DNA of 64,000 bases, taken from NCBI GenBank assembly GCA_028752905.1, contig JAQNBH010000007.1, forward strand, positions 46,113,526 to 46,177,525, written 5' to 3'. The notes beneath the pieces are model-generated. The model saw nothing but the letters and a program-made list of their open reading frames with translations. It ran no database searches and had not been told where the DNA came from. The stretch comes from Cladorhizidae sp. MBARI D1340-BT2 (lineage: Eukaryota > Porifera > Demospongiae > Poecilosclerida > Cladorhizidae). Positions within the stretch are counted from its first letter, which is position 1. Every line of letters begins with the position of its first letter. Positions 1 through 50,673 of this stretch are shown here, in pieces. The position numbers and the translations under genes were made by a program.

Positions 1-330
1 GCATGTACACACAACTAGGGACCACCATCACTGTCCTGCTATAACACTGCATGTACACACAGCTAGGGGCCACCATCACTGACCTACTATAACACTGCAT
101 GTAGGGGCCACCATCACTGACCTACTATAACACTACATGTACACACAGCTATGGACCACCATTACTGACCTGCTATAACACTGCATGTACACACAGCTAG
201 GGACCACCATCACTGACCTGCTATAACACTGCATGGTACACACAGCTAGGGACCACCATCACTGACCTACTATAACACTGCATGTACACACAGCTAAGGG
301 CCACCATCACTGACCTACTATAACACTGCA
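1..330. repeat. 48-bp minisatellite, copy 1, cut by window start
   Basis: About seven head-to-tail units of 48 bp; each begins gcatgtacacacagctaggg and ends gacctgctataacact. One unit near 97-130 is shortened by loss of the acacacagcta part. The longer sister array is 34505-35029. Confidence 0.95.
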
Positions 331-1715
331 TATACAGTGGACCTGATGCAAGATATCTTGCGATCTGCAGGCCACATTATACGCTGTATTTCTTCTTCAA
401 TCTTGACTATGCTGCAGTAAAACTTCCATACATGTGTTTCGCTGCTGCATATTGGGTGACAATCTTCTTTTGTTCTCTATTTTTAACCCTCTCCCCCGGT
501 GACTTTATTTTGGGAAAGAAAAAAAAATGACATGTATGAACGTATGCCCTTTTATCTCAACAAGGGTTGACTAAAGTCCATAGCAACCATATTGTATCCA
601 ATAGCCCTTGTTATAACCAACATTGTGGTTACCAACTGTTGCCATAGTTACAAACCACAATGTGGTGAATCCAATTATTATAAGTTACTTAAGAGAGGAG
701 AATTGTTGGAAATAGACACAGCTACAGTTAAAAATTAATATAAAATCTGGAATGCAATAGTACCTAGCAACCATATATTATGGGGTAGCATTATTGTTGA
801 TAAACATGTGGTAATTTTGGTGAAAAACACACACTGACCACAAAGTATGAATATGATTATGGATTTAATCAATATAAGAACATTGATTATATATAATTTT
901 TGCCTAAATATTTTTTGTTGTATTTCAAACAATGTGGTTAGGATGTTGTGACCACATCCAATGAATATGATTGTGTATTTATAAACATAATATTGCTTCT
1001 CGTTTTTTACATAAATATGTTTCTATTACTTGAACCAATGTGGTCAAATGCTTGTGACCACATTCTGACCATAGCATATGAATATAATTATGCTTGTTTA
1101 TCAACATAAAACATTGTTTATGATGATAAATGCATTTTTTTATAATTTTTTTATATAATACTCTGGTCAAGATTATGTGACCATAATGATAATAATGATA
1201 AAATAATAATAAAAAATAATAATAATTAAAAAAAAATTAAAAAAAATTAAAAAAACATGCTGAATACAACTATGAATATTATTATGCTTATTTATCAATA
1301 CAACAGATCCCAGTTGAACACGGACCTGAGATACAAAGCTGCCTCCTCCAGGATAGCAACCCAGTGAGCATCATACTCCAAGAGACATTTTAGGTGCACT
1401 GTCTCCATACCATAAGAACATTGCTTATAATCCTGAGTATATTGTTTACATACATATTATTTGACACAATGTGACTATTTTTATATATATATATATCACA
1501 ATGTTACTATTATTATTTATATATATATGACACACTGTATAATGGATTTGGCTTATTGAGAATGAACATAATTCAATAACTTATAGCCATTTTGCCAAGG
1601 AACTAGCGTCTCTTGTTACCATCGAGCACCACGAGGAGGTATGGCTATATTGCCCAACACACAACACACACATAAAACACATAAATCATATCACAACAAC
1701 AACAAAATTAAAAAA
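331..1715. other. AT-rich single-copy DNA of the duplication, no gene seen
   Basis: Contains runs of A and T (about 1180-1260), a (TA)n stretch near 1480-1530 and several loose repeats of caatgtggt and its complement. Short open frames here lack recognisable motifs. The same DNA recurs at 35030-36440 with small indels. I see no RNA gene or domain. Confidence 0.7.
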
Positions 1716-1767
1716 TCACATTACACATTGTGTGCAGAAAAGCATGTTGCTGCAACATGATGCACTT

Positions 1768-2235
1768 TCAATGTGCGACATACAATGTGTAGACAAAGAG
1801 TAAGACAACAAATATAACGCATATAACAGTTGGAGATGTAGGACCTGGTACCTTTGTATACGTGTAATGTGTTGCACATGACTCCTCTTTTGACCAACTA
1901 CCAACCACTGAGTCCAAGTGGTATCTACTAGATGGGTGCGCCAAAGAAGTAGGTGCAGGACATGTAATGGAGCTATGTGGATTGAATCGAGGAACAGCAG
2001 AAGAAACAGAAGAAACAAGAGCAGCAGTACTGGCAGCAGAAGTACCAGGAGTGGAAGCACCACCAGCAGAAGTACCAGAGGTTCCAGCATGAGACCTTAG
2101 TTTCTCAGTGGCCACTGGTCGCGACGCCACGACGATCATTGCCTCAGGAAGGCATTCCTCGTATAGTAACTGATGGATAACGGACTTGATTTCCTCTTGG
2201 GGATGGAATTAGTCTAATCCGTCAAGTATAAATCC
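1768..2235 (-). pseudogene. NACHT (NLR-type) ATPase fragment, copy 1
   Basis: Read on the minus strand, 2235 to about 2092 encodes a short NACHT-like stretch. It has a Walker B-like motif FILDGLD at 2234-2212, an in-frame TAA at 2211-2209 where an acidic residue is normally found, then FHPQEEIKSVIHQLLYEE and LPEAMIVVASRPVATEKLR. VVASRP matches the sensor-1 region of NACHT proteins. After that the frame becomes Ser/Thr/Gly/Ala-rich and ends in a hydrophobic stretch (VICVIFVVLLFVYTLY) that does not look like an NLR. Walker A is absent, and the 29/33-bp minisatellite starts directly upstream of the Walker B motif. It is a relic of an NLR-type innate immunity gene, not a working one. Family assignment rests on motif reading only. 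Confidence 0.68.
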
Positions 2236-4723
2236 CAGAGTATATGACTGGCTGAAGAAGATCCCAGTGAGAGCATATGACTGGCTGAAGAAGGTCACAG
2301 AGTATATTACTGGCTGAAGAAGGTCTCAGAGTATATGACTGGCTGAAGAAGGTCTCAGAGTATATGACTGGCTGAAGAAGGTCCCAGAGTATATGATTGG
2401 CTGAAGAAGGTCCCAGAGTATATGACTGGCTGAATAAAATCCCAGTGAGAGTATATCATTGGCTTAGGAAGATCCCAGTGAGAGTATATGACTGGCTGAA
2501 GAAGGTCTCAGAGTATATGACTGGCTGAAGAAGACCTCAGTGAGAGTATATGACTGGCTGAAGAAGGTCTCAGAGTATATGACTGGCTGAAGAAGGTCCC
2601 AGAGTATATGACTGGCTGAAGAAGGTCCCAGAGTATATGACTGGCTGAATAAAATCCCAGTGAGAGTATATGACTGGCTGAGGAAGATCCCAGTTAGAGT
2701 ATATGACTGGCTGAAGAAGGTCTCAGAGTATATGACTGACTGGCTGAAGAAGGTCCAGAGTTTATGACTGGCTGAAGAAGTCCCCTAGTATATGACTGGC
2801 TGAAGAAGATCCCAGTGAGGGTGTTTGACTGGCTGAAGAAGATCCCAGAGTATCTGACTGGCTGAAGAAGTTCCCAGAGTATATGACTGGCTGAAGAATG
2901 TGCCAGAGTATATGACTGGCTGAAGAAGACCTCAGTGAGAGTATATGACTGGCTGAAGAAGGTCTCAGAGTATATGACTGGCAGAAGAAGGTCCCAGAGT
3001 ATATGACTGGCTGAAGAAGGTCCCAGAGTATATGACTGGCTGAATAAGACCTCAGAGTATATGACTGGCTGAAGAAGGTCCCAGAGTATATGACTGGCTG
3101 AAGAAGGTCCCAGTGAGAGTATATGACTGGCTGAAGATGTTCTCAAAGTATATGACTGGCTGAAGAAGTTTCCAGAGTATATGACTGGCTGAAGAAGATC
3201 ACAGTGGGAGTATATGACAGGCTTAAGAAGGTCGCATGACTGGCTGAAGAAGATCTCAACGTATATGACTGGCTGAAGAAGATCCCAGTGAGAGTCTATG
3301 ACTGGCTGAAGAAGGTCCCAGTGAGAGTATATGACTGGCTGAAGAAGATCTCAGAGTATATGAGACTGGCTGAAGAAGGTCCCAGAGTATATGACTAGCT
3401 AAAGAATATCCCAGTGAGTGTATATGAATGGCTGAAGAAGGTCTCAGAGTATATGACTGTCTAAAGAAGGAACCAGAGTACATAACTGGCTGAAGAAGAT
3501 CCCAGTGAGAGTATATTACTGGCTGAAGAAGGTCTCAGAGTATATGACTGGCTGAAGAAGATCCAAGAGTATATGACTGGCTGAAGAATATCTCAGATTA
3601 TATGACTGGCTAAAGAAGGACCCACAGTACATGACTGGCTAAAGAAGATCCCAGTGGGAAGTATATGAATGGCTGAAGAAGGTTTCAGAGTATATGACTG
3701 GCTGAAGAAGATCCCAGTGAGAGTATATGACTGGCTGAAGAAGGTCCCAGTGAGAGTATATGACTGGCTGAAGAAGGTCTCAGAGTATATGACTGGCTGA
3801 AGAAGGTCCCAGAGTATATGACTGGCTGAAGAAGGTCCCAGAGTATATGACTGGCTGAATAAAATCCCAGTGAGAGTATATCACTGGCTTAGGAAGATCC
3901 CAGTGAGAGTATATCACTGGCTGAAGAAGGTCTCAGAGTATATGACTGGCTGAAGAAGACCTCAGTGAGAGTATATGACTGGCTGAAGAAGGTCTCAGAG
4001 TATATGACTGGCTGAAGAAGGTCCCAGAGTATATGACTGGCTGAAGAAGGTCCCAGAGTATATGACTGGCTGAATAAAATCCCAGTGAGAGTATATGACT
4101 GGCTGAGGAAGATCCCAGTTAGAGTATATGACTGGCTGAAGAAGGTCTCAGAGTATATGACTGACTGGCTGAAGAAGGTCCAGAGTTTATGACTGGCTGA
4201 AGAAGTCCCCTAGTATATGACTGGCTGAAAAAGATCCCAGTGAGGGTGTTTGACTGGCTGAAGAAGATCCCAGAGTATCTGACTGGCTGAAGAAGTTCCC
4301 AGAGTATATGACTGGCTGAAGAATGTGCCAGAGTATATGACTGGCTGAAGAAGATCTCAGTGAGGGTATATGACTGGCTGAAGAAGACCTCAGTGAGAGT
4401 ATATGACTGGCTGAAGAAGGTCTCAGAGTATATGACTGGCTGAAGAAGGTCCCAGAGTATATGACTGGCTGAAGAAGGTCCCAGAGTATATGACTGGCTG
4501 AATAAAATCCCAGTGAGAGTATATGACTGGCTTAGGAAGATCCCAGTTAGAGTATATGACTGGCTGAAGAAGGTCTCAGAGTATATGACTGACTGGCTGA
4601 AGAAGGTCCAGAGTTTATGACTGGCTGAAGAAGTCCCCTAGTATATGACTGGCTGAAGAAGATCCCAGTGAGGGTGTTTGACTGGCTGAGGAAGATCCCA
4701 GAGTATCTGAATGGCTGAAGAAG
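2236..4723. repeat. 29/33-bp minisatellite, copy 1
   Basis: Dozens of units built on tatgactggctgaagaag followed by either gtcccagag (29 bp) or atcccagtgagag (33 bp). A block near 2440-2870 recurs near 3860-4290 and partly again near 4500-4720, so the array grew by copying multi-unit blocks. On the minus strand the units read as Ser/Gln-rich repeats (SQSYTL, SSASHIL); open frames here come from repeat length and are not genes. Confidence 0.95.
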
Positions 4724-4724
4724 A

Positions 4725-6236
4725 AAACTAATAAATATCCATCCCCATGACATCCAAAACGAAATCTTGATAGTGATGGCTGAGCTTATGTTGAGGGGAA
4801 TTGCTAGCTCCCTTCAGTCATCTCCATAATGATGGAATGAAATGACTGATGTTTCTAATCATGTGCAAGCAACTTTAGGTTTTCGGTCAGTAATGGATGA
4901 TTTCGACATATTTGAAGAGTTCCTTGAACTTTATTAAGGCCGATCAATTGACTCTATGACATTAAAAAAAGTTATGGAAGATTCTCTCTGTAGACTCAAC
5001 ATTCCTTTCTCCTAAGTCCGTGGACAATGCTATGAGGGAGCCAGTATAATGAGTGGAGTTAGATCTGGGCTGGCCAAGTTGATAATGGATAAAGAGACCC
5101 GGGCACTCTATACTCATTGTTATGGCTCTCTATAAATCTTGCAGTGAATGATGCCATAAAAGTATCTAAACCCATTAAAAATGCCTTGGGATGTAACCCA
5201 TGAAGTCACTAAACTTATAAAATTCTCCCCACATAAGGAAGAGATGTTTAGAGAATTAAAAAGACACCATGACTTAATCCATGATTCTCACTCGGCAGGA
5301 ATGAGATTACTCTGTCCAACCAGATGAATTGTGCGAGCTGATGCTTTAGCCGTAACTTTGAAGTTCTTTTGCAAACATGGGAAGAGACTGTAGATGTTGT
5401 TAATTAAGGATACAGAGACCAAAGCACAACTAATGGGGTATGTGCTCAGATGCAAACTTTTGAATTTTTATTTGCTAATTCTCCTGGGGAAATGGTCTTG
5501 CATAACTCTGACAATTTATGTTCAACAATTCAGAAGAAAACAACATCTGCTGCTGAGCCAGCAACTTGCAAAGCTATACTGCAGCATATATACACGCAAC
5601 CCAGAAGCTTATGACCTGTTTTGGACAAAAGTTTTGAATTTTGCTGAATCTGCAGATATTGGACCACCAGTTACCATGCCGGTGAAAAAGGCCAGCAAGG
5701 TTAGATGAAGGTGGAAATATGAAGGTGGAAATAATCACCAATTTCATGAAACTGCTTTATTATGAAACTGTATAATACTAATAACTGTATTGCGAACCGC
5801 TTTGATCAACCAAGTTATAGCAAGTTGGAACAGTATCTTATCAAGGGCCAGTTATGCAGCAGATTTTGAGGAAGAATTTAAAGTTGTATGTGACTTCTGC
5901 AAGGATGATTTTAATCCAGATGATCAACTTATAACTTTTGGTATTGAATTTCAGCAAAAGAACAACATGGCAACCTCAGCAACTACAATTTTTTATATCA
6001 GGGATCATTTCAAGGCATATTCAATTGATTATGGTGATGCCTGCAACTAATGCCACATCAGAAAGGTCATTCCGTGCACTCCGTCGAGTGAAAACTTATC
6101 TTAGAACTACTATGAAGCAGGAGAGTCTTAACAAATCTATTGATCCTTCATGTGCATAAGGAATGCACAGATTCTTTAGATCTACAAGAGGTGGCCAATG
6201 ATTTCCTCTCAGATTCTGAGCATCATATCAAAGGTA
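4725..6236 (+). pseudogene. hAT transposase relic (ZMYM1/DUF4371-like), copy 1
   Basis: The plus strand holds pieces of a TTF/ZMYM-type hAT transposase in several frames. 5030-5400 contains YTHCYG- and NLAVNDAIK-like pieces of the catalytic core and HSAGMRLLCPTR. 5394-5708 covers the insertion region (NPEAYDLFWTKVLNFAESAD, IGPPVTMP). 5790-6050 holds FEEEFKVVCDFC. 6040-6159 holds the C-terminal dimerisation motif ATSERSFRALRRVKTYLRTT. Many stops and frameshifts separate these parts, so no transposase can be made. Compared with copy 2, about 40 bp between caatt direct repeats near 6026 is missing, while copy 2 lacks caactaatg. No terminal inverted repeats or target duplication were identified. 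Confidence 0.85.
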
Positions 6237-7187: not shown

Positions 7188-7192
7188 GTGCC
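7188..7192. repeat. Target-site duplication, left (gtgcc)
   Basis: The five bases gtgcc directly precede the 5' LTR and recur directly after the 3' LTR at 12200-12204. Five-base duplications fit a Ty3/gypsy integrase. Confidence 0.85.
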
Positions 7193-7445
7193 TGTCAGAC
7201 ATTGATAGCGTAAACTGAGCTAGTTTAGTGTTGAGACATACTTATTGGTTTGAGACTAGTGTATGATTATTTAGCACTATTTATTTATGTTTATATTGTT
7301 AAAGTATTTAAACCTACAGCTCTTAATTATACTCTTCGTGAGTGGGAGACAGCAGGAAAGCTGATTTTGGCTTAGACAGAGTTTTGTTGTTTAGGCGTCA
7401 CAGGATACTAGACTACTTAGAGATAGTAGAAGTATTTGCCTGACA
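7193..7445 (+). repeat. 5' LTR, 253 bp
   Basis: Starts tgtcagac and ends gcctgaca, giving TGTCAG...CTGACA inverted ends. From 7205 to the end it matches the 3' LTR except for gcgtcacagg here against gcgtcagcagg there. An AT-rich stretch (ttaaagtatttaaacc) about 120 bases in could hold the promoter; that is inference. Confidence 0.9.
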
Positions 7446-7446
7446 G

Positions 7447-7463
7447 TGGTGGCAGCGGTATTC
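7447..7463 (+). promoter_or_regulatory. Primer-binding site
   Basis: tggtggcagcggtattc begins one base after the 5' LTR. TGG at its start pairs with a tRNA CCA end, as in tRNA-primed LTR elements. I cannot name the tRNA without a tRNA set from the host. Confidence 0.65.
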
Positions 7464-7641
7464 TCTTAGTGACAGAGAACCCGACAACAGTTTAGCTAGT
7501 CTGTAATAGTGTACAGGGGAAACAACTCAGGCTAGGCCTAGAGAGTTTGTGAAACCAAATCCCTGGTCAGCTAGGCTAGTATTGTTTTCGTTTTTTTTTG
7601 TACATTTGAAAAAATATTATTTTTAGTGTGTTGAGGTTGTC

Positions 7642-8979
7642 ATGTCAGAAGAACGACAACATAGAGAATCTCGTCGTCTTCGGAACACCAATCCAGAGAC
7701 TCTGCCCCCTCTAGAGTCTATCTCTGACACTAACGAACCCTTAGATCGATTTATGGCTCAATGGCTCCAAATGGATCAACGGAGAACAGAGAGGGAGGAA
7801 CAGAGGCATGAGGAGGATAGACGACAAGCAGCCCAGCAACAAGAGAGGTTGTTTCAACATCTGGTCGAGTTTCACAGACCATCAGTGGTTGAGCCACCTC
7901 CACCCACTCCTAAACTAACTCTGCAGAAATTTCAGGAGGGCGTGGATGACATGGGTGCTTTTCTGCAAACGTTTGAAGTCACGGCTCAGGCAGGACGATG
8001 GCCAGAAGAACAATGGCCTGTATTCCTCCGAAGCTCACTATCCGGAGCAGGGATGACGGCTATATCAACCCTAAGCTCAACAGAACAAAATGACTATCAG
8101 ATCATTAAAAGCACTCTACTAGCAACATACCAAGTCACTACAGAAACATACAGAAAGAGGGGTTTTGAGAAGACTTTTGATGGAAGCAACTCTGATGCCT
8201 GGTTAAGGGGGCATCAACAAAATTTCCATCAGTGGATCAACTCATCCGAAAAAGGGGCTGAGACTTTGATGCTGATGGAAGTAACCCTGAAAAAACTACC
8301 ACGGTGGCTGGAGATACAAATGAGAAACTTAGATCCTAGCACCTACAAGGAGTTGAGTGAGGCGATTGTGAGGCATCTAGGAAATCAAAGGAGAGAACCA
8401 GATGTACCCAGACAATCTGATAGAACGAACAAATTTAGACCAAGAGAGAGCTCAGAGAGTAACACTCCTACTCACCTACGAGTACCAAATTCAAGACGAC
8501 TAGAAGTAAACCGATCCCCACCAACAAGTGGAGATTCTAGCAGACATTCTCCCCGAGATCTAAGCCAGATCGAGTGTTTTCGTTGCGGCAAGAAAGGCCA
8601 CCTAAGAAGGGATTGTAGAGTGAAACTTGAAAAGGTTCACCTCACAAGCAACCCTGATGGAAGTAAGACTTTGCCTAAATGGACTCGTAGGGTGAAGGTC
8701 AACGATAGATCCATTCTTGCCTTTCTAGACACAGGCTGCTCAAAATCAATTGTCCACCCTAGATGCATTCGAAAATCGGACTTCCTTGATTGGAAGATAC
8801 CTTATACTACTGCCAGCTCTAAGAAGACATGGTTTCCAGCAGCCAAGATCCAGCTGCAAGTGGAGGAAAAGTGCATTGAGTTAGCAGTAGGGGTATCTCC
8901 CCACATTGGAAATCGACATGTTAATGGGACGAGATATTGCTCATTTTCAGAGGTTTCTGAAAGAGGAGCTGGACACTGA
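7642..8979 (+). CDS. Gag with SCAN-like capsid, CCHC knuckle and start of protease
   Basis: 445 codons from ATG at 7642, the first in-frame ATG after the leader. Residues 44-80 are charged, coiled-coil-like and Gln/Glu/Arg-rich. Residues about 90-246 form the capsid region; 168-246 (around YRKRGFEKTF, ETLMLMEVTLKKLP, EIQMRNL, LSEAIVRHL) resembles a SCAN domain, known to derive from Gmr1-like capsids. A basic Ser/Arg/Pro-rich linker follows. One zinc knuckle is at C312, C315, H320, C325 (CX2CX4HX4C). The retropepsin active site DTG is at 363-365. The frame ends at 8979, but the conserved C-terminal protease motif (MLMGRD) lies in the next frame at 8918-8938, so the protease is split by a +1 change between about 8880 and 8920. 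This may be a single-base mutation or a programmed shift. Confidence 0.9.
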   Translation: MSEERQHRESRRLRNTNPETLPPLESISDTNEPLDRFMAQWLQMDQRRTEREEQRHEEDRRQAAQQQERLFQHLVEFHRPSVVEPPPPTPKLTLQKFQEGVDDMGAFLQTFEVTAQAGRWPEEQWPVFLRSSLSGAGMTAISTLSSTEQNDYQIIKSTLLATYQVTTETYRKRGFEKTFDGSNSDAWLRGHQQNFHQWINSSEKGAETLMLMEVTLKKLPRWLEIQMRNLDPSTYKELSEAIVRHLGNQRREPDVPRQSDRTNKFRPRESSESNTPTHLRVPNSRRLEVNRSPPTSGDSSRHSPRDLSQIECFRCGKKGHLRRDCRVKLEKVHLTSNPDGSKTLPKWTRRVKVNDRSILAFLDTGCSKSIVHPRCIRKSDFLDWKIPYTTASSKKTWFPAAKIQLQVEEKCIELAVGVSPHIGNRHVNGTRYCSFSEVSERGAGH

Positions 8980-11896
8980 AGTAGAGTTAACCCCAGTTCA
9001 TGAAGAAAGAAAGCAGACAACGCTGGCACGTGAGGAAGTGGTAATGATCACAACCAGAGCACAAGCAGAAAAACAAAGCCAACTCAGGCAGAAAGAGGAA
9101 CAGCAACAAGAGGATGACAACCCAGTTATCCAACCAGTGGAACTAGAAGATGAGCTAGAAGAAGATGTTGACATGGAAAGTAGTATTACAACCCTAGACC
9201 AGAACACAGAAGAAGATGAATCAATTTTTGAGACAGTATCTCCGGAGAAACTAAGAGTACTACAGAAACAAGATCCTACGCTAAATAAAACCAGAGAAAA
9301 AGCTAAAGAGGGAAGCAGTCTTTTCTTTTGGGAGAATGAATTACTGATGAGACAGCCCTATCACCAGAATGGAAAAAAGCTCATTATTGTTCCCAAGGAT
9401 GCCCGTACTCGAATTCTACAAATGGCCCACAACTCTCCCGTGGCAGGACATTTTGGCCAGACTAGAACTCTTGAAGCTATCAGGACCAGGATGGATTGGC
9501 CAGGTATTGCTAAAGACGTGGGAATAATGTGTAAATCATGCCCTGTGTGTCAGAGAGCTGGACCAGCAGTAGCAGGTAGAGCCCCATTGCATCCCCTACC
9601 TATAATGGAAGCACCCTTTCAACGCATTGCCATGGACATATTTGGGCCTCTTAAAAGAACAACTGCCGGGAATAAATATGTCCTTGTTATAATGGATTAT
9701 ATGACCAAGTGGCCAGAGGCTTTTCCTCTACGTAATATGACAGCAGAAACAGTGGTTAACTGTTTAATTCAATTGACCTCTAGACTTGGGGTACCTCAAG
9801 AAATATTAACTGACAATGGCACTAACTTTGTGTCAAAGACCGTTAAACAGTTTTGTGAGATGACAGGGATCCATCAGATCAGGACCTCCCCATACCACCC
9901 CCAAACGGATGGTATGGTGGAGAGGTTTAACTCGACAATGAAGAGGCTTCTGAAGAAACTGACCTCCACTCATGAAAAGGAATGGGACAAATGCATACCT
10001 TTTGTCTTATGGGCATACAGGGGGACTGTGCACAGCACAACAGGATTCTCTCCATTCCATCTGCTCTTTGGAAGAGAGATGAGCTTACCTTTGGACGAAC
10101 TTGCCAAATTCTGGAAGAATAAAGAGGAGACAAATGATGTGAACACGTTAGAGTACATCACAACCCTAAAGGAGAACATACAACTAGTACAGCAAATAGC
10201 AAAAGAAAATGAGACAAAGGAAAAAGAGAGTCACAAATATTACCACGACAGGAAAGCAACTCATCGAAAATTCGAAGTTGGAGATTTTGTTCTCGTATTC
10301 AGACCCAGGAAAGCAGACAAATTGACTAGCGAGTGGCATGGACCCTACATTGTCACAGAAAAGATTACTCCAGTGACCTATAAAGTAGATTTAGGAACTA
10401 CAAGGAAGAGGTTCCATGTTTTCCACATCAATGGTATGAAGTCATGGGTGTCACCTACTCCAGCTGTGTTTCTCGCATTGGATGACGAATTAGACGATCC
10501 CTTCATAGAAGATTCAAAAGTGGAGAACAAAGAAAAAAACCACCTTTCATTGGAACAGCAGCAACAACTCACAGAGTTAAAGAAGGAGTATCAGGATGTA
10601 ATCCAGGATGTTCCTGGGAGGACGAGCTTTGTGGAACATTGTATTGTTACGGGAGATGCTGTACCCATCCGACTGCCTCCATACAGACTCGCACATAAGT
10701 CACAGGATTTTTTGAGAGAAGAGATTAAGAACTTGTTGGATCAAGGAATCATCGAACCATCACGTAGTCCATGGGCTGCTCCCATAGTACTGGTACCAAA
10801 GAAGGAAGGATCGATGAGGATGTGCGTTGATTACCGGAAACTGAATGCTGTCACTCGTGGAGATCCTTACCCGCTACCACATATTGACGATCTGATTGAC
10901 GGGATAGGAAAGGCAAGGTATATAACCACATTAGATTTAACTAAGGGATACTACCAGGTACCTATGGAAGAGTCTAGTAAAGAAAAAACAGCTTTTGTCA
11001 CTCCATGGGGCAAGTATCAATTTATTGCCATGCCCTTTGGCCTTGTGTCAGCCCCAACAACTTTCCAGAGGTTAATGGACCAAGTACTTGAAGGTTTATA
11101 CACTTTTGCAAGTGCCTATTTAGACGACATCCTTATACATAGTTTGTCCTGGGACGATCATATGAAACATTTGCGATAAGTCTTTACCAAGATCAGAGAG
11201 GCAGGGTTATGCATTAAAGAAAAAAAAAGTAATTTTGCTGTCAATGAGTGTGTGTATCTGGGACACATTATTGGAGAAGGAAGGGTGAAACCAATGGAAT
11301 GCAAGATTCAAGCGGTGCAATCTTTCCGGAAGCCACAGACCAAGAAGGAGGTGCGATCCTTTTTGGGACTATGCGGGTATTACCGTCGTTTCATTCCTAA
11401 TTTTGCAACCATAGCCACTCCCCTCACTGAACTTACAAGAAAGAAAATGCCAAACAAAGTAAGATGGACAATACTATGTGATCAGTCATTCAAAAAATTG
11501 AAAGATGCTTTGACAAAATACCCAGTGTTGACCATTCCAAATTGGAATGAACAGTTTATTCTGCAGACAGATGCCTCTGCAACAGGCATTGGCTATGTCC
11601 TAAGCCAAAAAGATGAACAAAGAAATGAACATCCCATCGCTTTCGGTTCAAGGAAATTATTACCAAGGGAGCAAAGGTATTCTGCTATCGAGCGTGAAGC
11701 TCTAGCTATAGTTACAGGAATTCGTAACTTTCGAGTGTACTTAGATGGAACGAAGTTTCTAATCGAAACAGATCACGACCCTCTCACCAAACTCACTGGT
11801 AATGATTACTCCGTGAATGACCAGGAAGCCTTCAGAGTCGAATACGGGAGTACTGATTGGTCGAACAAGTCCGTGCCCGCGCATGGTCAAGAGTAA
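8906..11896 (+). pseudogene. Pol: protease end, integrase, reverse transcriptase, RNase H; interrupted
   Basis: One frame with a single TAA at 11177-11179. Numbering from 8906 (a TTG; the frame enters from the protease): MLMGRDI at 5-11 is the protease C-terminus. Integrase zinc-binding residues are H175, H182, C212, C215; catalytic D244, D303 (LTDNGTNF) and E339, 35 residues apart; a GPY/F-type module is near 477-510. RT begins near 560, with LDLTKGYYQV at 676-685 and the catalytic YLDD at 738-741. The stop falls after the palm, and the same frame continues to 11896 with YLGHIIGEG, FLGLCGYYRRFI and RNase H motifs QTDAS, AIEREAL and ETDHDPL. The RNase H tail with the last catalytic Asp is missing. 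After about 11815 the reading loses similarity, probably by deletion. Charged, Gln-rich spacer sequence lies between protease and integrase (30-110). Confidence 0.92.
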
Positions 11897-11897
11897 C

Positions 11898-11940
11898 TAT
11901 GAGAAACGAAAGAAAAGAGTGAGGAGCGAGCGAACAGAGA
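11898..11940 (+). promoter_or_regulatory. Purine-rich region, candidate polypurine tract
   Basis: gagaaacgaaagaaaagagt and following bases are mostly purine and lie just before the 3' LTR, where plus-strand DNA synthesis is primed in LTR elements. It does not abut the LTR exactly, and the first bases of the 3' LTR are altered, so the exact tract is uncertain. Confidence 0.4.
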
Positions 11941-11947
11941 TAGCGAG

Positions 11948-12199
11948 TTTTAGACGTATAGCGTAAACTGAGCTAGTTTAGTGTTGAGACATACTTATTG
12001 GTTTGAGACTAGTGTATGATTATTTAGCACTATTTATTTATGTTTATATTGTTAAAGTATTTAAACCTACAGCTCTTAATTATACTCTTCGTGAGTGGGA
12101 GACAGCAGGAAAGCTGATTTTGGCTTAGACAGAGTTTTGTTGTTTAGGCGTCAGCAGGATACTAGACTACTTAGAGATAGTAGAAGTATTTGCCTGACA
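11948..12199 (+). repeat. 3' LTR, 252 bp
   Basis: From atagcgtaaactgagc (11958) to gcctgaca it repeats the 5' LTR with one inserted g. The first ten or so bases (ttttagacgt) have diverged from tgtcagacattg, so its TG start is lost. Confidence 0.88.
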
Positions 12200-12204
12200 G
12201 TGCC
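12200..12204. repeat. Target-site duplication, right (gtgcc)
   Basis: Matches 7188-7192 exactly. The DNA before 7188 and after 12204 should therefore be one continuous pre-insertion locus (...attgtgcc / attgcaaaatg...). Confidence 0.85.
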
Positions 12205-12303: not shown

Positions 12304-12642
12304 CTAAGAAAATTTGCCTGGGGAGGCAGTTGCATAATTGGCCATTGGTGTGAAGTATGCAGCTAAAACTATACTTCTATTTTGTGAAGTGCATATATAC
12401 GAGGCTAAAAAGGAGTACATGACCTTGTCTCCAGTTAGCTTTTCTTTCATAAATTCATCTGATAATGGAATAAATTCAGTGTCACGATGAATCAAGAGCA
12501 TTGCTAATCCACTCAACCACTCATCCTTCATTGAAGAACGTGTCCAAAGCTTTAGACGACGAAGAGCAGAAAAAGATCTCTCACAAGATACACTTCCCAC
12601 AGTTAATAATTGCAGGTGAATGACACATAGAGAGCACAGCTA
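12304..12642 (-). pseudogene. hAT transposase C-terminal fragment
   Basis: Minus-strand frame open from a stop at 12642-12640 down to 12304. It carries SVSCERSFSALRRLKLWTRS, SMKDEWLSGLAMLLIHRDTE and then a short tail, the classic hAT dimerisation region of ZMYM1/TTF-type transposases. The catalytic core is absent. A possible second-exon boundary lies upstream, but I see no upstream coding match to 12860. It is a different family from the hAT relics at 4725 and 42845, because the shared ERSF-ALRR motif differs around it. Confidence 0.8.
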
Positions 12643-34504: not shown

Positions 34505-35029
34505 AGCTAGGGGCCACCATCACTGACCTACTATAACACTGCATGTACACACAGCTAGGGACCACCATCACTGACCTGCTATAGCACTGCATATACACAC
34601 AGCTAGTGACCACCATCACTGACCTGCTATAACACTGCATGGTACACACAGCTAGGGACCACCATCACTGACCTGCTATAACACTGCATGTACACACAGT
34701 TAGGGGCCACCATCACTGACCTGCTATAACACTACATGTACACACAGTTAGGGGCCACCATCACTGACCTGCTATAACACTGCATGTACACACAGCTAGG
34801 GGCCACCATCACTGACCTACTATAACACTGCATGTACACACAGCTAGGGACCACCATCACTGACCTGCTATAGCACTGCATGTACACACAGCTAGGGACC
34901 ACCATCACTGACCTGCTATAACACTGCATGGTACACACAGCTAGGGACCACCATCACTGACCTACTATAACACTGCATGTACACACAGCTAAGGGCCACC
35001 ATCACTGACCTACTATAACACTGCATATA
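34505..35029. repeat. 48-bp minisatellite, copy 2
   Basis: About eleven units of the 48-bp sequence described at 1-330. The last four units match those of copy 1 in variant order (tgcatggtacacac, then ctaagggcc). Confidence 0.95.
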
Positions 35030-36460
35030 CAGTGGACCTGATGCAAGATATCTTGCGATCTGCAGGCCACATTATACGCTGATTTCTTCTTCAGTCTTGA
35101 CTATGCTGCAGTAAAACTTCCATACATGTGTTTCGCTGCTGCATATTGGGTGACAATCTTCTTTTGTTCTCTATTTTTAACCCTCTCCCGGGTGACTTTA
35201 TTTTGGGAAAGAAAAAAAAAGACATGGATTAACGAACGTATGCCTTTTATCTCAACAAGGGTTGACTAAAGTCCATAGCAACCATATTGTATCCAATAGC
35301 CCTTGTTATAACCAACATTGTGGTTACCAACTGTTGCCATAGTTACAAACCACAACGTGGTGAATCCAATTATAAGTTACTTAAGAGAGGAGAATTGTTG
35401 GAAATAGACACAGCTACAGTTAAAAATTAATATAAAATCTGGAATGCAATAGTACCTAGCAACCATATATTATGGGATAGCATTATTGTTGATAAACATG
35501 TGGTAATTTTTGTGAAAAACACACTGACCACAACGTATGAATATGATTATGGATTTAATCAATATAAGAACATTGATTATATATAATTTTTGCCTAAATA
35601 TTTTTTGTTGTATTTCAAACAATGTGGTTAGGATGTTGTGACCACATCCAATGAATATGATTGTGTATTTATAAACATAATATTGCTTCTAACGTTTTTT
35701 ACATAAATATGTTTCTATTACTTGAAACAATGTGGTCAAATGCTTGTGACCAAATTCTGACCATAGCATATGAATATAATTATGCTTGTTTATCAACATA
35801 AAACATTGTTTATGATGATAAATGCATTTTTTAATAATTTTTTTATATAATACTCTGGTCAAGATTATGTGACCATAATGATAATAATGATAAAATAAAA
35901 TATAAAAAAATTTTAAAAAAAATTAAAAAAAATAAATAAAAAAAATTTAAACATGCTGAATACAACTATGAATATTATTATGCTTATTTATCAATACAAC
36001 AGATCCCAGTTGAACACGGACCTGAGATACAAAGCTGCCTCCTCCAGGATAGCAACCCAGTGAGTATCATACTCCAAGAGACATTTTAGGTGCACTGTCT
36101 CCATACCATAAGAACATTGCTTATAATCCTGAGTATATTGTTTACATACATATTATTTAACACAATGTGACTATTTTTATATATATATATATCACAGTGT
36201 TACTATTATTATTTATATATATATGACACGCTGTATAATGGATTTGGCTTATTGAGAATGAACATAATTCAATAACTTATAGCCATTTTGCCAAGGAACT
36301 AGCGTCTCTTGTTACCATCGAGCACCACGAGGAGGTATGGCTATATTGCCCGACACACAACACACACATAAAACACATAAATCATATCACAACAACAACA
36401 AAATTAAAAAATCACATTACACATTGTGTGCAGAAAAGCATGTTGCTGCAACATGATGCA
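35030..36460. other. AT-rich DNA of the duplication, copy 2, no gene seen
   Basis: Matches 331-1750 with indels (for instance cgctgatttc against cgctgtatttc, and a different A/T run near 35890-35950). Confidence 0.7.
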
Positions 36461-36467
36461 CTTTCAA

Positions 36468-36935
36468 TGTGCGACATACAATGTGTAGACAAAGAGTAAG
36501 ACAACAAATATAACGCATATAACAGTTGGAGATGTAGGACCTGGTACCTTTGTGTACGTGTAATGTGTTGCACATGACTCCTCTTTTGACCAACTATATA
36601 CCAACCACTGAGTCCAAGTGGTATCTACTATATGGGTGCGCCAAAGAAGTAGGTGCAGGACATGTAATGGAGCTATGTGGACTGAATCGAGGAACAGCAG
36701 AAGAAACAGAAGAAACAAGAGCAGCAGTACTGGCAGCAGAAGTACCAGGAGTGGAAGCACCACCAGCAGAAGTACCAGAGGTTCCAGCATGAGACCTTAG
36801 TTTCTCAGTGGCCACTGGTCGCGACGCCACGACGATCATTGCCTCAGGAAGGCATTCCTCGTATAGTAACTGATGGATAACGGACTTGATTTCCTCTTGG
36901 GGATGGAATTAGTCTAATCCGTCAAGTATAAATCC
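36468..36935 (-). pseudogene. NACHT fragment, copy 2
   Basis: Same minus-strand Walker B-like FILDGLD, the same TAA (36911-36909) and the same VVASRPVATEKLR stretch as copy 1, so the stop predates the duplication. A four-base insertion (ctatataccaacc against ctaccaacc) shifts the downstream frame, which ends at 36594. The array-derived frame upstream runs into the Walker B motif without a break. Confidence 0.66.
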
Positions 36936-39900
36936 CAGAGTATATGACTGGCTGAAGAAGATCCCAGTGAGAGTATATGCCTGGCTGAAGAAGGTCTCAG
37001 AGTATATGACTGGCTGAAGAAGGTCCCAGAGTATATGACTGGCTGAAGAAGATCCCAGTGAGATTATATGACTGGCTGAAGAAGGTCTCGGAGTAAATGA
37101 CTGGCTGAACAAGGTCCCAGAGTATATGACTGTCTGAAGAAGGTCCCATAGTATAATTATGACTGGCTGAAGAGGGTCTCGGGGTATATGACTGGCTGAA
37201 GAAGATCCCAGTGAAAGTATATGACTGGCTGAAGAAGGTCCCAGAGTATATGACTGGCTGAAGAAGTATATGACTGGCTCCCAGTGAGAGTATATGACTG
37301 GCTGAAGAAGATCTCAGAGTATATGACTTGCTGAAGAAGATCCCAGTGAGAGTATATGACTGGCTGAAGGTCTCAGAGAATATGACTGACCGAAGAAGGT
37401 CTCAGAGTATATATATATATGATGGGCTGGGGAAGGTCCAGTGTATATGACTGGCTGAAGAAGATCCGTGTTAGAGTATATGTCTGGCTGAAGAAGGTCT
37501 CAGAGTATATGACTGGCTGAAGAAGGTCCAGAGTATATAACTGGCTGAAGAAGATCCCAGTGAGGGTATATATATGACTGGCTGAAGAAGGTCTCAGAGT
37601 ATATGACTGGCTGAAGAAGATCCCAGTGAGAGTATATGACTGGCTGAAGAATGTCCCAGAGTATATGACTGGCTGAGGAAGGTCTCAGAGTATATGACTG
37701 GCTCCCAGTGAGAGTATATGATTGGTTGAAGAAGGTCTCAGAGTATATGACTGGCTGAGGAAGGTCCCAGAGTAAATGAGACTGGCTGAAGACGGTCCCA
37801 GTGAGAGTATATGACTGGCTGAAGATGTTCTCACAGTATATGACTGTCTGAAGAAGTTTCCAGAGTATATGACTGGCTGAAGAAGATTCCAGTGAGAGTA
37901 TATGACTGGCTAAAGAAGGTTGCAGAATATATGACTGGCTGAAGAAGATTTCAACGTATATGACTGGCTGAAGAAGATCCCAGTGAGTCTATGACTGGCT
38001 GAAGAAGGTCCCAGTGATAGTATATGACTGGCTGAAGAAGATCTCAGAGTATATGACTGGCTGAAGAAGATCCCTGAGTATATGACTGGCTGAAGAAGGT
38101 CATAGAGTATATGACTGGCTCAATAAGGTCACAGAGTATATGACTGGCTGAAGAAGATCCCAGAGTATATGACTGGCTGAAGAAGATCCCAGTGAGAGTA
38201 TATGACTGGCTGAAGAAGGTCTCAAAGTATATGACTGGCTGAAGAAGGTCCCAGAGTTTATGACTGGCTGAAGAAGATCCCAGTGAAAGTATATGACTGG
38301 CTGAAGAAGGTCATAGAGTATATGACTGGCTCAATAAGGTCACAGAGTATATGACTGGCTGAAGAAGATCCCAGTCGAAGTATATGCCTGGCTGAAGAAG
38401 GTTATGACTGGCTGAAGAAGATCCCAGAGTATATGACTGGCTGAAGAAGATCCCAGTGAGAGTATATGACTGGTTGAAGAAGGTCTCAGAGTATATGAAT
38501 AGCTGAAGAAGATCCCAGTGAGAGTGTATGATTGGCTGAAGGAGGTCGCAGAGTATTTGACTGGCTGAAGAAGGTCTCAGTGTATATGACTGGCTGAAGC
38601 AGATCCCAGTGAGAGTATATGACTGGCTGAAGAAGATCTCAGAGTATATGACTGGCTGAAGAAGGTCCCAGAGTATATGACTGGCTGAAGAATATCCCAG
38701 TGAGAGTATATGACTGGCTGAAGATGTTCTCAAAGTATATGACTGGCTGAAGAAGTTTCCAGAGTATATGCCTGGCTGAAGAAGATCACAGTGGGAGTAT
38801 ATGACAGGCTTAAGAAGGTCGCATGACTGGCTGAAGAAGATCTCAACGTATATGACTGGCTGAAGAAGATCCCAGTGAGAGTCTATGACTGGCTGAAGAA
38901 GGTCCCAGTGAGAGTATATGACTGGCTGAAGAAGATCTCAGAGTATATGAGACTGGCTGAAGAAGGTCCCAGAGTATATGACTGGCTGAAGAATATCCCA
39001 GTGAGTGTATATGAATGGCTGAAGAAGGTCTCAGAGTATATGACTGTCTAAAGAAGGAACCAGAGTACATAACTGGCTGAAGAAGATCCCAGTGAGAGTA
39101 TATTATTGGTTGAAGAAGGTCTCAGAGTATATGACTGGCTGAAGAAGATCCAAGAGTATATGACTGGCTGAAGAATGTCTCAGATTATATGACTGGCTAA
39201 AGACCCACAGTACATGACTGGCTGAAGAAGATCCCAGTGGGAAGTATATGACTGGCTGAAGAAGGTTTCAGAGTATATGACTGGCTGAAGAAGATCCCAG
39301 TGAGAGTATATGTCTGGCTGAAGAAGGTCTGACTGGCTGAAGAAGATCTCAGTGAGAGTATATGACTGGCTGAAGAAGGTCTCAGAGTATTTGACTGGCT
39401 GAAGAATGTCTCAGAGTATATGACTGGCTGAAGAAGATCCCAGTGAAAGTATATGACTGGCTGAAGAAGGTCATAGAGTATATGACTGGCTCAATAAGGT
39501 CACAGAGTATATGACTGGCTGAAGAAGATCCCAGAGTATATGACTGGCTGAAGAAGATCCCAGTGAGAGTATATGACTGGCTGAAGAAGGTCTCAAAGTA
39601 TATGACTGGCTGAAGAAGGTCCCAGAGTTTATGACTGGCTGAAGAAGATCCCAGTGAAAGTATATGACTGGCTGAAGAAGGTCATAGAGTATATGACTGG
39701 CTCAATAAGGTCACAGAGTATATGACTGGCTGAAGAAGATCCCAGTCGAAGTATATGCCTGGCTGAAGAAGGTTATGACTGGCTGAAGAAGATCCCAGAG
39801 TATATGACTGGCTGAAGAAGATCCCAGTGAGAGTATATGACTGGTTGAAGAAGGTCTCAGAGTATATGAATAGCTGAAGAAGATCCCAGTGAGAGTGTAT

Positions 39901-44559: not shown

Positions 44560-45204
44560 ATGTGATTAGCAGCCGATTACAGGGGGAAGGATAGGAGGCC
44601 CAAGGCATGGTGGGAGGCTAAAAGGATAATCTTTGTTATTACGGCGGCGAGATGATAGAGATGGCTTAGTGAGAAGAGAAGCGTAGTCCCAGGGCCAATG
44701 TTCACTGCATAATTTACAGGCAAAGTAATGTATTCTGAGATGAAAGATGGGATGATTGAGTCCCAGAGGAAAGAACAGTACTCCAGATGAGAATGGATAA
44801 GAGAAGTGTAGAGGCGAAGAAGAATAGAAGTGTCTGAATAGCAGTAGAAATGACGTAGAGAAGACCAATTAATTCACAGGTCTTAGAAGATATGGGAGTG
44901 GCAGGATAGAGATGAAGCAATGAGGATCCCCAGGTCACTGTGGTCCAGGATAGAGATGAAGCAATGAGGATCCCCAGGTCACTGTGGTCCAGGATAGAGA
45001 TGAAGCAATGAGGATCCCCAGGTCACTGTGGTCCAGGATAGAGATGAAGCAATGAGGATCCCCAGGTCACTGTGGTCCAGGATAGAGATGAAGCAATGAG
45101 GATCCCCAGGTCACTGTGGTCCAGGATAGAGATGAAGCAATGAGGATCCCCAGGTCACTGTGGTCCAGGATAGAGATGAAGCAATGAGGATCCCCAGGTC
45201 ACTG
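44560..45204 (-). pseudogene. LINE reverse transcriptase C-terminal relic, copy 2
   Basis: Minus frames give FACKLCSEHWPWDYASLLTK and SLSSRRRNNKDYPFSLP (44868-44566) and SKTCELIGLLY (44938-44714), more readable than in copy 1. Cut at the 44-bp array; sequence upstream of it is replaced by unrelated DNA. Confidence 0.55.
44905..45204. repeat. 44-bp minisatellite, copy 2
   Basis: About 6.8 units, all of the gatcccc type, ending aggtcact before unrelated sequence. Confidence 0.95.
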
Positions 45205-48867: not shown

Positions 48868-50535
48868 TCAGAGTATATATATAGCTCCCAAGCAGTCAGG
48901 CAAGTCCATTCCACAGTCTCGATTGAACCGCTCACACTTTGGTGGTAGGCTGATGTGCAATGCCTCCTTCACTAGCAGTTCCTTCTGTCTTCTGGCCTGG
49001 TCCAAGATGGCGACTTCCTCCCACAGAATAGGATGTCCATTATCCCATGCATGCTCAGCAATTGCAGACTTCTCTTTAGTACACTTTCTACAGGCATCTT
49101 GATGTTCTTTCACTTGGTCTCCAGTCTTCTGATGTTCTCCTCTATGTAGTATTGTCCACAGCTACAAGGGATGCGGTACACAATGCATGAGTGCATATTA
49201 GCTGGTAAAACATCCTTCACTCTGCTCATTTGTGTCCTTAGAGTTCTTCCCGATCTGAAGACGACTTTGATGTTGAACTTTCCTGCAGATCCTCCTGATG
49301 TCTTCACTCATGCCTGCTGCATGAGGAATCACTACCATAGGATTCTTCTTTTTATACCACTCGTGGCCTGTACTGGTGTACTCATCTTCCTGTCTGTGTT
49401 TAAATGTATCTGCAGACAAAAGGTTGATGAAGGCTTGTGGATAACCGTTCCCTATAAAGACCTTATTCAAATGATGTTCTTCCTTCCAAAGGTCCTCCTT
49501 CTCAGTCACTGCTCTTCTGGCTCTATCATCTTCACCACTCCTCTTCTGACATGGATGGGATGATGTGCTCCATAATCAAGGTACCAATTCAAGCTCCATG
49601 GTAAACTTTATGGATGGCCTGATGTTGTTCAGATGGTCCAACAACTCGTGCTCACTTTCCTTCTTCACAATGCATAAGGTATCATCCACATATCTCTTCC
49701 AAACCCTTGGCTTCAGTGGGGCAGTTGTGAGTGCCAATTCCTCAAAGAAAGGTTGGCCACCACTGCAGATACTGGTGATCCCATTGCTGCACCCTCTTTC
49801 TGCTTGGAGTATTTTTCTTGATACCTGAAGTAGGTGGATTTCAGGCACAACTCCAACAGTTCAGAAATCCTGTTAGCACATAGTGAACTCCTCTCACGCA
49901 AGCTCTCATCTTTTGTCAACATTTAAAAAATTACTTCCACAGCCTCATCTAATGGGAACACATTGGTAAAAAGAGAGGAAACATCAAAACTGACAAAATA
50001 CTCATCCTGTGCCAAACATTCACATTGAATACACTTGTTTGCCCAGAATCATTGACATATGACTTGTATTTGCAGCTAGAGGTGATATCAAATATGCTAT
50101 AAACTTGGAAAGATTATACGACGGTGCACGTATACAAGACACAATAGGCCTAAGGGGAACCTCAGGTTTATGTAGCTTAGGGAGCCCATAAATCAGTGGT
50201 AGTCTACTTCCAGTGGCCCTAATTCTATTGTATAATGCAGTTGTTATTTCTCCCATCTTCTCCATACTCTTTAACACAGGTTCACCTTGCTTTCCTGTGC
50301 CTTGGTAGGATCCTTCTTCAGTATTCCATGTTTTGATTTCCGGCATTCCCGTCAGCTTTGAAATGTACCTGTCCTTTGTCATAAGAACTGTTGTCTTCCC
50401 TTTGTCTGCTGGTAAGATTACGAGCTCTTCCATCTCCTCAGTTCTCCAAGCTTGTCCATTGGAAAGAAAAAAGGAGTTATGGGAAAAGGCATGGGAGAAG
50501 CACAGCAGCCCATGATGGAGCTTGCTTGGGCTCAA
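48868..50535 (-). pseudogene. Penelope-like element: reverse transcriptase plus GIY-YIG endonuclease
   Basis: Minus strand, broken into several frames but in correct order. 50535-50020: ILPADKGKTTVLMTKDRY, LPLIYGLPKLHKPEVPLRPI and SYNLSKFIAYLISPL (RT fingers). 49922-49713: QKEGAAMGSPVSAVVANL. 49848-49576: KRYVDDTLCIV, the catalytic YVDD, then SIKFTMELE. 49509-49198: linker with NGYPQAFI. 49307-48868: YRIPCSCGQYYIEENIRRLE, AIAEHAWDNGHPILWEE, KEALHISL and NRDCGMDLPDCL, a GIY-YIG-type domain (here YRIP...YYI; the usual Gly after YI is Glu). At least four frame changes and a Gly loss make it inactive. Such elements typically have terminal repeats; I found none flanking. Confidence 0.88.
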
Positions 50536-50673
50536 GTAAAGCTTCTACACTCCATGTTTCTTTAGCTTGAAAAAAATGGATGTTGAAGTTTCATTCTGAC
50601 ACTCTAGCTATGAACAGGTTTGCTAAACTGGAAATAATCATCACGTGAATGGCTCTGCCTAAAATTAATCACC

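What the first reader, a model, noticed from the sequence alone, without database searches (positions are those of the whole stretch)
7193..12199. Gypsy-type element with integrase before reverse transcriptase (Gmr1 order) in a probable early-branching animal
The pol frame 8906-11896 is continuous apart from one stop and places an integrase (D244, D303, E339 with 35 residues between the last two, plus GPY/F) ahead of a gypsy-like RT with YLDD. This order is known for Gmr1-like elements, first reported from deuterostomes. If the host is a sponge or other non-bilaterian, the copy bears on the age of that lineage.
Basis: partly seen in the sequence, partly recalled or inferred. Interest (0 to 1): 0.75.

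Follow-up and report, generated by a model that had tools for sequence, protein, structure and literature searches.

The report
Integrase-first gypsy retrotransposon in a sponge
This is a damaged, recently inserted copy of a jumping gene whose enzyme domains sit in an unusual order (integrase before reverse transcriptase); it belongs to a lineage already known from fish, sea squirts, shrimps and worms, and here it is abundant in the genome of a sponge.

Summary
Window 7193-12199 is one LTR retrotransposon with a 5-bp target-site duplication, encoding gag/protease, integrase (D244, D303, E339; GPY), then gypsy-type RT (YLDD) and RNase H. The host is a demosponge by COX1 and mitochondrial atp9. 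The order is not an accident of this copy: the host has at least 16 other close and 107 more distant integrase matches, and 120 of the 120 homologues listed (of 5284) are integrase-first, including two Ephydatia sponge gene models and three fish proteins. With a Mag-like outgroup, integrase and RT trees agree (100/100 each), so no sign of a chimera. Yeast Ty3 RT, a long branch, falls inside the group; the clade is not rejected (p 0.306). The copy is more damaged than reported: a frameshift and two 177-nt deletions besides the stop. Gmr1-like elements were already in print beyond deuterostomes. Presence in sponges fits an old lineage but does not exclude horizontal transfer. New member of a known kind.

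The parts
7188..7192 (.). 5-bp target-site duplication, left copy (GTGCC)
   Evidence: sequence read directly; three other copies have GGCTT, GCTGC and GTCAG
7193..7445 (+). 5' LTR, TG...CA, 253 bp left of a 430-bp family LTR (177 bp missing inside)
7447..7458 (+). primer-binding site TGGTGGCAGCGG, likely for tRNA-Leu (tRNA sequence recalled, not found in the host here)
   Evidence: same motif after the LTR in the four other copies examined and in both array loci (L018, L019)
7642..8979 (+). gag and start of protease: CCHC zinc knuckle (PF00098) and FLDTG protease motif (read by eye); frame broken relative to pol
9389..9565 (+). integrase H2C2 zinc-binding domain
   Evidence: PF17921, E 2.6e-18
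9611..9922 (+). integrase core (rve), up to the last active-site residue: D244-D303-E339
   Evidence: PF00665, E 6.6e-18; residues; PFV integrase match 2.2e-32
10301..10441 (+). integrase C-terminal part with GPY motif
   Evidence: PF22938 and PF24626; HGPY at residue 478
10793..11176 (+). reverse transcriptase up to the stop, YLDD
   Evidence: PF00078, E 7.3e-27; Ty3 RT 1.7e-54
11177..11179 (+). in-frame TAA inside RT
11180..11896 (+). end of RT and RNase H; 177 nt missing after window 11801 relative to other copies; the frame runs into the 3' LTR
   Evidence: PF17919/PF17917
11802..12199 (+). 3' LTR, lacking its first 33 bp; the polypurine tract before it is also lost
   Evidence: 33 = LTR start at 1697 in the other copies, deletion 1553-1729
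12200..12204 (.). 5-bp target-site duplication, right copy (GTGCC)

Best explanation
A defective copy of a Gmr1-type (integrase-first) Ty3/gypsy LTR retrotransposon family in a demosponge genome. The family copies itself through RNA: tRNA-primed reverse transcription, then integrase inserts the cDNA with a 5-bp duplication. Gag, protease, integrase, RT and RNase H are read in one frame in several other copies, so the domain order changes only the layout of the polyprotein, not the cycle (inferred). Shown: anatomy, order, target-site duplications, many copies, near-identical LTR pairs, host. Inferred: the replication cycle from the known biology of LTR elements, the primer tRNA and recent activity. 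This copy itself cannot make a whole pol protein and has lost its polypurine tract.
For: TSD and LTR ends; domains and order; 124 integrase matches scored in the host out of 18,908 first-look candidates, 17 (window included) at 83-100% and 107 at 62-68%; with yeast Ty3 RT as query, 29 of the 30 loci fetched (of 150 matches) have integrase upstream of RT, the 30th had none within its 1.5-kb flank; 120 of the 120 homologues listed (of 5284) integrase-first, Pfam order confirmed for the two checked, P0077 (Ephydatia) and P0117 (Danio); RT and INT trees without Ty3 give the integrase-first set as one side of a branch at 100/100 and the window nearest to the same host copies; LTR pairs 0 substitutions of 241 (window), 1, 0 and 4 of 430 in three other copies; host COX1, atp6 and atp9.
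Against: With yeast Ty3 included, the RT tree puts Ty3 (very long branch) beside a host integrase-first element, so the clade is not one side of a branch; the test does not reject the clade, p 0.306, and INT support falls to 91/87. The bootstrap had not settled in three of the four trees (and both), so their values are rough. No sequence of cod Gmr1 was available. The homologue list was drawn with an integrase-plus-RT query and so favours the same order.
Confidence: 0.93

Rival explanations
1. The order is a local accident: nested insertion, rearrangement or misassembly at this locus put an integrase ahead of an RT.
For: The copy is clearly rearranged at its 3' end and in its 5' LTR, with two 177-nt deletions.
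Against: Integrase and RT share one ORF; TSD frames the whole unit; the same order is at other host loci and in the 120 homologues listed; trees agree.
Confidence: 0.02
2. A Ty1/copia element, or a copia-gypsy hybrid, which would give the integrase-first order directly.
For: Copia elements have this order by default (stated in PMC6238403, passage read).
Against: RT matches RVT_1 and Ty3, with no RVT_2 match at E 0.01; the integrase carries the GPY region and p58_C.
Confidence: 0.02
3. The integrase-first order arose more than once within gypsy, and the sponge group is an independent case that only looks like Gmr1.
For: Ty3 RT falls within the integrase-first RTs; the host families stand apart from the fish plus Ephydatia group in the integrase tree.
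Against: Clade not rejected with Ty3 and 100/100 without it; INT tree 91/87 with Ty3. The outgroup was thin: 10 Mag-like rows and Ty3.
Confidence: 0.1

Closest known systems
Gmr1-like Ty3/gypsy elements (cod, Ciona; crustacean GyRex4-related, gilt-head bream Saugg1; annelid LGF3)
   Same: gypsy-type RT and RNase H with integrase upstream of RT (order as described in PMC3587641 and PMC8220671, passages read)
   Different: host is a demosponge; no named Gmr1 sequence was available for a direct comparison
Ephydatia muelleri gene models Em0002g1039a and Em0003g900a (P0077, P0093)
   Same: sponge, integrase before RT, 46% and 42% identical (Pfam positions for P0077 only); gene-name style matches the genome paper PMC7385117 (passages read)
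   Different: fall in the large subgroup with the fish elements, not with the host's own families
Usual-order gypsy elements of the same host genome (C18, L064/L066 and L060/L065), called Mag-like here (label recalled)
   Same: Ty3/gypsy LTR-type elements in the same genome
   Different: RT and RNase H before integrase, the usual order
Yeast Ty3
   Same: RT 53% identical over the aligned stretch
   Different: integrase after RT: RT at 560-764, integrase at 1091-1444 of the same chain

Membership tests
Gmr1-like Ty3/gypsy | Ty3/gypsy-type RT and RNase H | tested here: met
   PF00078, PF17917, PF17919; Ty3 RT best PDB match
Gmr1-like Ty3/gypsy | integrase upstream of RT in the same pol | tested here: met
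Gmr1-like Ty3/gypsy | RT and integrase both fall with other integrase-first gypsies, apart from usual-order gypsies | tested here: inconclusive
   met at 100/100 in both trees against 10 Mag-like rows; with Ty3 added INT 91/87, but Ty3 RT falls inside the group, clade not rejected p 0.306
Gmr1-like Ty3/gypsy | groups with cod Gmr1 itself | not testable with these tools
   no Gmr1 reference sequence held; three fish integrase-first proteins used as stand-ins
LTR retrotransposon | TG..CA LTRs, TSD, primer-binding site, polypurine tract | tested here: met
   the tract is lost in this copy and seen before the 3' LTR of four other copies
Ty1/copia | RVT_2-type RT | tested here: not met
   no RVT_2 match at E 0.01, RVT_1 instead
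Chimera or nested insertion | RT and integrase of different ancestry or separated by insertion boundaries | tested here: not met
   one ORF, one TSD, agreeing trees

The most novel reading that the evidence does not exclude
Integrase-first gypsy elements were already present, in at least two sublineages, in the common ancestor of sponges and other animals, and in this sponge they form the bulk of Ty3-like elements, partly spread as tandem arrays of whole units that share LTRs.
Probability: 0.35. Interest if true: 0.5.

Novelty: new member of a known kind. Interest (0 to 1): 0.3.

Why it matters
It puts a clear, abundant, recently inserted integrase-first gypsy family in a sponge. My searches (open-licence papers only, lists of 22 and 37 capped) showed no paper that reports Gmr1-like elements in sponges. 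It makes the age of the domain rearrangement testable across non-bilaterian genomes.

Tried and rejected
Local rearrangement, nested insertion and copia membership were rejected (see rivals). Viral-contig scans for usual-order gypsies gave nothing. PF03732 gave five weak matches in the host; the two followed up are usual-order elements. A 10,080-aa open frame listed on C136 is probably open only because of N runs: 9001 of 10,000 and 5999 of 10,000 bases in the two stretches fetched there. One homologue of the usual-order search, P0310, was scored integrase-first by my HMM step (93 of 94 the other way; 26 of the 120 listed lacked one domain); Pfam shows that it is RT-first. The empty site was sought only inside the window and not found. 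Tree rows: of 127 integrase-first sequences (120 database, 6 host, window) 106 had both domains at 85% length or more; 42 of these plus 4 further host copies were chosen by hand; of 17 outgroup names that I listed, 9 passed the filter and were used, with one host element and Ty3 (Ty3 left out). Host 18S rRNA, a host tRNA-Leu and a search of the host with Ty3 integrase did not complete by the tool.

Full report
What is there. The window holds a single LTR retrotransposon at 7193-12199, flanked by a 5-bp duplication GTGCC. Between the LTRs are a primer-binding site, a gag/protease ORF with a CCHC knuckle (7642-8979), and a pol frame that starts in the overlap and contains H2C2, rve, a GPY-bearing integrase tail, then RVT_1 with YLDD, a TAA at 11177-11179, and RNase H to 11896. 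The RT is of gypsy type: the best PDB match is Ty3, and RVT_2 (copia) was not matched.

The family. The window lies in an 857-Mb genome of 325 contigs. A piece of the integrase (322 aa) gave 124 scored matches out of 18,908 first-look candidates: 17 at 83-100% identity including the window copy, and 107 at 62-68%. I read the ends of four close copies. They have a 430-bp LTR (TGTCAG...CTGACA), a purine-rich tract ending in AAAGGGAGA just before the 3' LTR, and the same primer-binding site. Three of them carry 5-bp target-site duplications (GGCTT, GCTGC, GTCAG); the fourth, on C6, has a 5' LTR that matches only 409 bases of its 3' LTR, and I did not count a duplication there. The complement of TGGTGGCAGCGG fits the 3' end of animal tRNA-Leu (recalled sequence; the host tRNA search did not complete). 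In three of five 3' pieces examined the pol frame continues to a stop inside the LTR; two are interrupted earlier. Gag and pol share one frame upstream of integrase in four of four 5' pieces.

State and age of this copy. Against those copies the window copy has a frameshift in the gag-protease part, the stop in RT, a 177-nt deletion in the 5' LTR (LTR positions 13-189) and a second 177-nt deletion that removes the end of RNase H, the polypurine tract and the first 33 bases of the 3' LTR. The equal lengths are unexplained. The stretch shared by the two LTRs differs by no substitution in 241 bases and one single-base gap; three other copies have 1, 0 and 4 substitutions in 430. Insertion was recent, and the family was recently active (inference from LTR identity).

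The host. A COX1 search hit contigs C124-C128 and others (98 matches). In the stretch of C124 that I read (L024), cox1 lies next to atp6 and atp9, with TGA read as tryptophan. Among animals, mitochondrial atp9 is a sponge feature (recalled). The closest named COX1 cluster is Demospongiae (entry mnemonic XESMU, which I read as Xestospongia; 88%), and the best unnamed is 94%. In a 30-row tree the host sits in a group of 16 that holds all three rows labelled demosponge, supported 95/98.

Is the order general? In the protein database 120 of the 120 homologues listed (of 5284 found) have integrase before RT; the query covered both domains, so this favours the same order. They include fish (Acanthochromis, Fundulus, Danio) and two Ephydatia muelleri gene models; Pfam positions confirm the order in one of each (P0117, P0077). 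Searching the host with yeast Ty3 RT, a usual-order element, gave 150 scored matches out of 13,897 candidates; of 30 loci fetched, 29 have integrase upstream of RT and one shows none in its flank. The host also has usual-order elements: two were found through a gag profile. Their share of the genome was not measured.

Trees. With 46 integrase-first rows and 10 Mag-like rows, both the RT and the integrase tree separate the two orders at 100/100, and in each tree the window's five nearest rows are the same host copies (the bootstraps there had not fully settled). Adding yeast Ty3 as an eleventh usual-order row lowers the integrase split to 91/87 and, in the RT tree, places Ty3 on a 1.9-long branch beside a host integrase-first element; holding the integrase-first rows together costs 13.7 log-likelihood units and is not rejected, p 0.306. 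So there is no sign of a chimera, but the wider position of the group within gypsy is not settled here. In the integrase tree the host families and two unnamed database proteins (P0003, P0006) stand apart from a 37-row group (98/98) that contains both the fish and the Ephydatia elements: sponges therefore hold at least two branches.

Known or new. Integrase-first gypsies are the Gmr1-like elements. Passages I read say that they were found in cod and Ciona, reported as the first in protostomes from crustaceans (PMC3587641), then in an annelid (PMC8220671); one paper lists Gmr1 among clades present in several phyla (PMC8556966). Four held papers name Gmr1, gypsy and sponge together, and five Gmr1, gypsy and Cnidaria. 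In the seven distinct papers of these two lists I read the Gmr1 passages of five, none of which reports Gmr1 from a sponge or cnidarian; the other two (PMC8143547, PMC8184853) I did not open, as their titles concern mammalian brain and fly hormones. Two broader searches returned capped lists. Public Ephydatia gene models already encode the arrangement. I file this as a new member of a known kind with a host record of some value for dating the lineage.

Tandem arrays. On C4 seven integrase matches follow each other 5277 bases apart (5328 once), and on C1 four at 5426-5429. Two fetched stretches show two neighbouring units each, 99.5% and 99.9% alike over 4.6 kb, with gag, integrase and RT in the same order and a primer-binding site. 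About 720 bases separate the RNase H end from the next primer-binding site in L019, so neighbouring units probably share one LTR (inference).

Noticed in passing
G000 C4:7910762-7943437; C1:36447651-36464894; C5:3791141-3799869 (L018, L019): Evenly spaced integrase matches (3.9 to 5.4 kb apart) that look like head-to-tail arrays of integrase-first elements; the two stretches fetched (C4, C1) are near-identical neighbouring units, probably sharing LTRs.
   Followed up: partly
G000 C124-C128 (L024-L027), also chromosome-sized contigs such as C2:12306419-12365332: Dozens of full and cut cox1 copies at irregular spacing (C124 is 140 kb), and mitochondrial-like copies in large contigs: scrambled mtDNA, a multipartite genome, or an assembly artefact.
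   Followed up: no
window 7193-7445 and 11801/11802: Two deletions of exactly 177 nt in different contexts of the same copy; no mechanism found.
   Followed up: partly
window 1-4722 and 34686-39406: Large duplicated block (89.6% identical), with the 44-bp repeats beside the element's left flank recurring at 44902-45204.
   Followed up: no
window 13683-34506: Repeated blocks, each a string of similar minisatellites (36, 21, 42, 32 and 22 bp units) in much the same order.
   Followed up: no
window 12304-12600, minus strand: Fragment resembling the hAT transposase dimerisation region, below the Pfam cut-off (E 8.3e-4).
   Followed up: no
window 50020-50544, minus strand: ORF that looks by eye like a piece of a Penelope-type reverse transcriptase; no Pfam match.
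   Followed up: no
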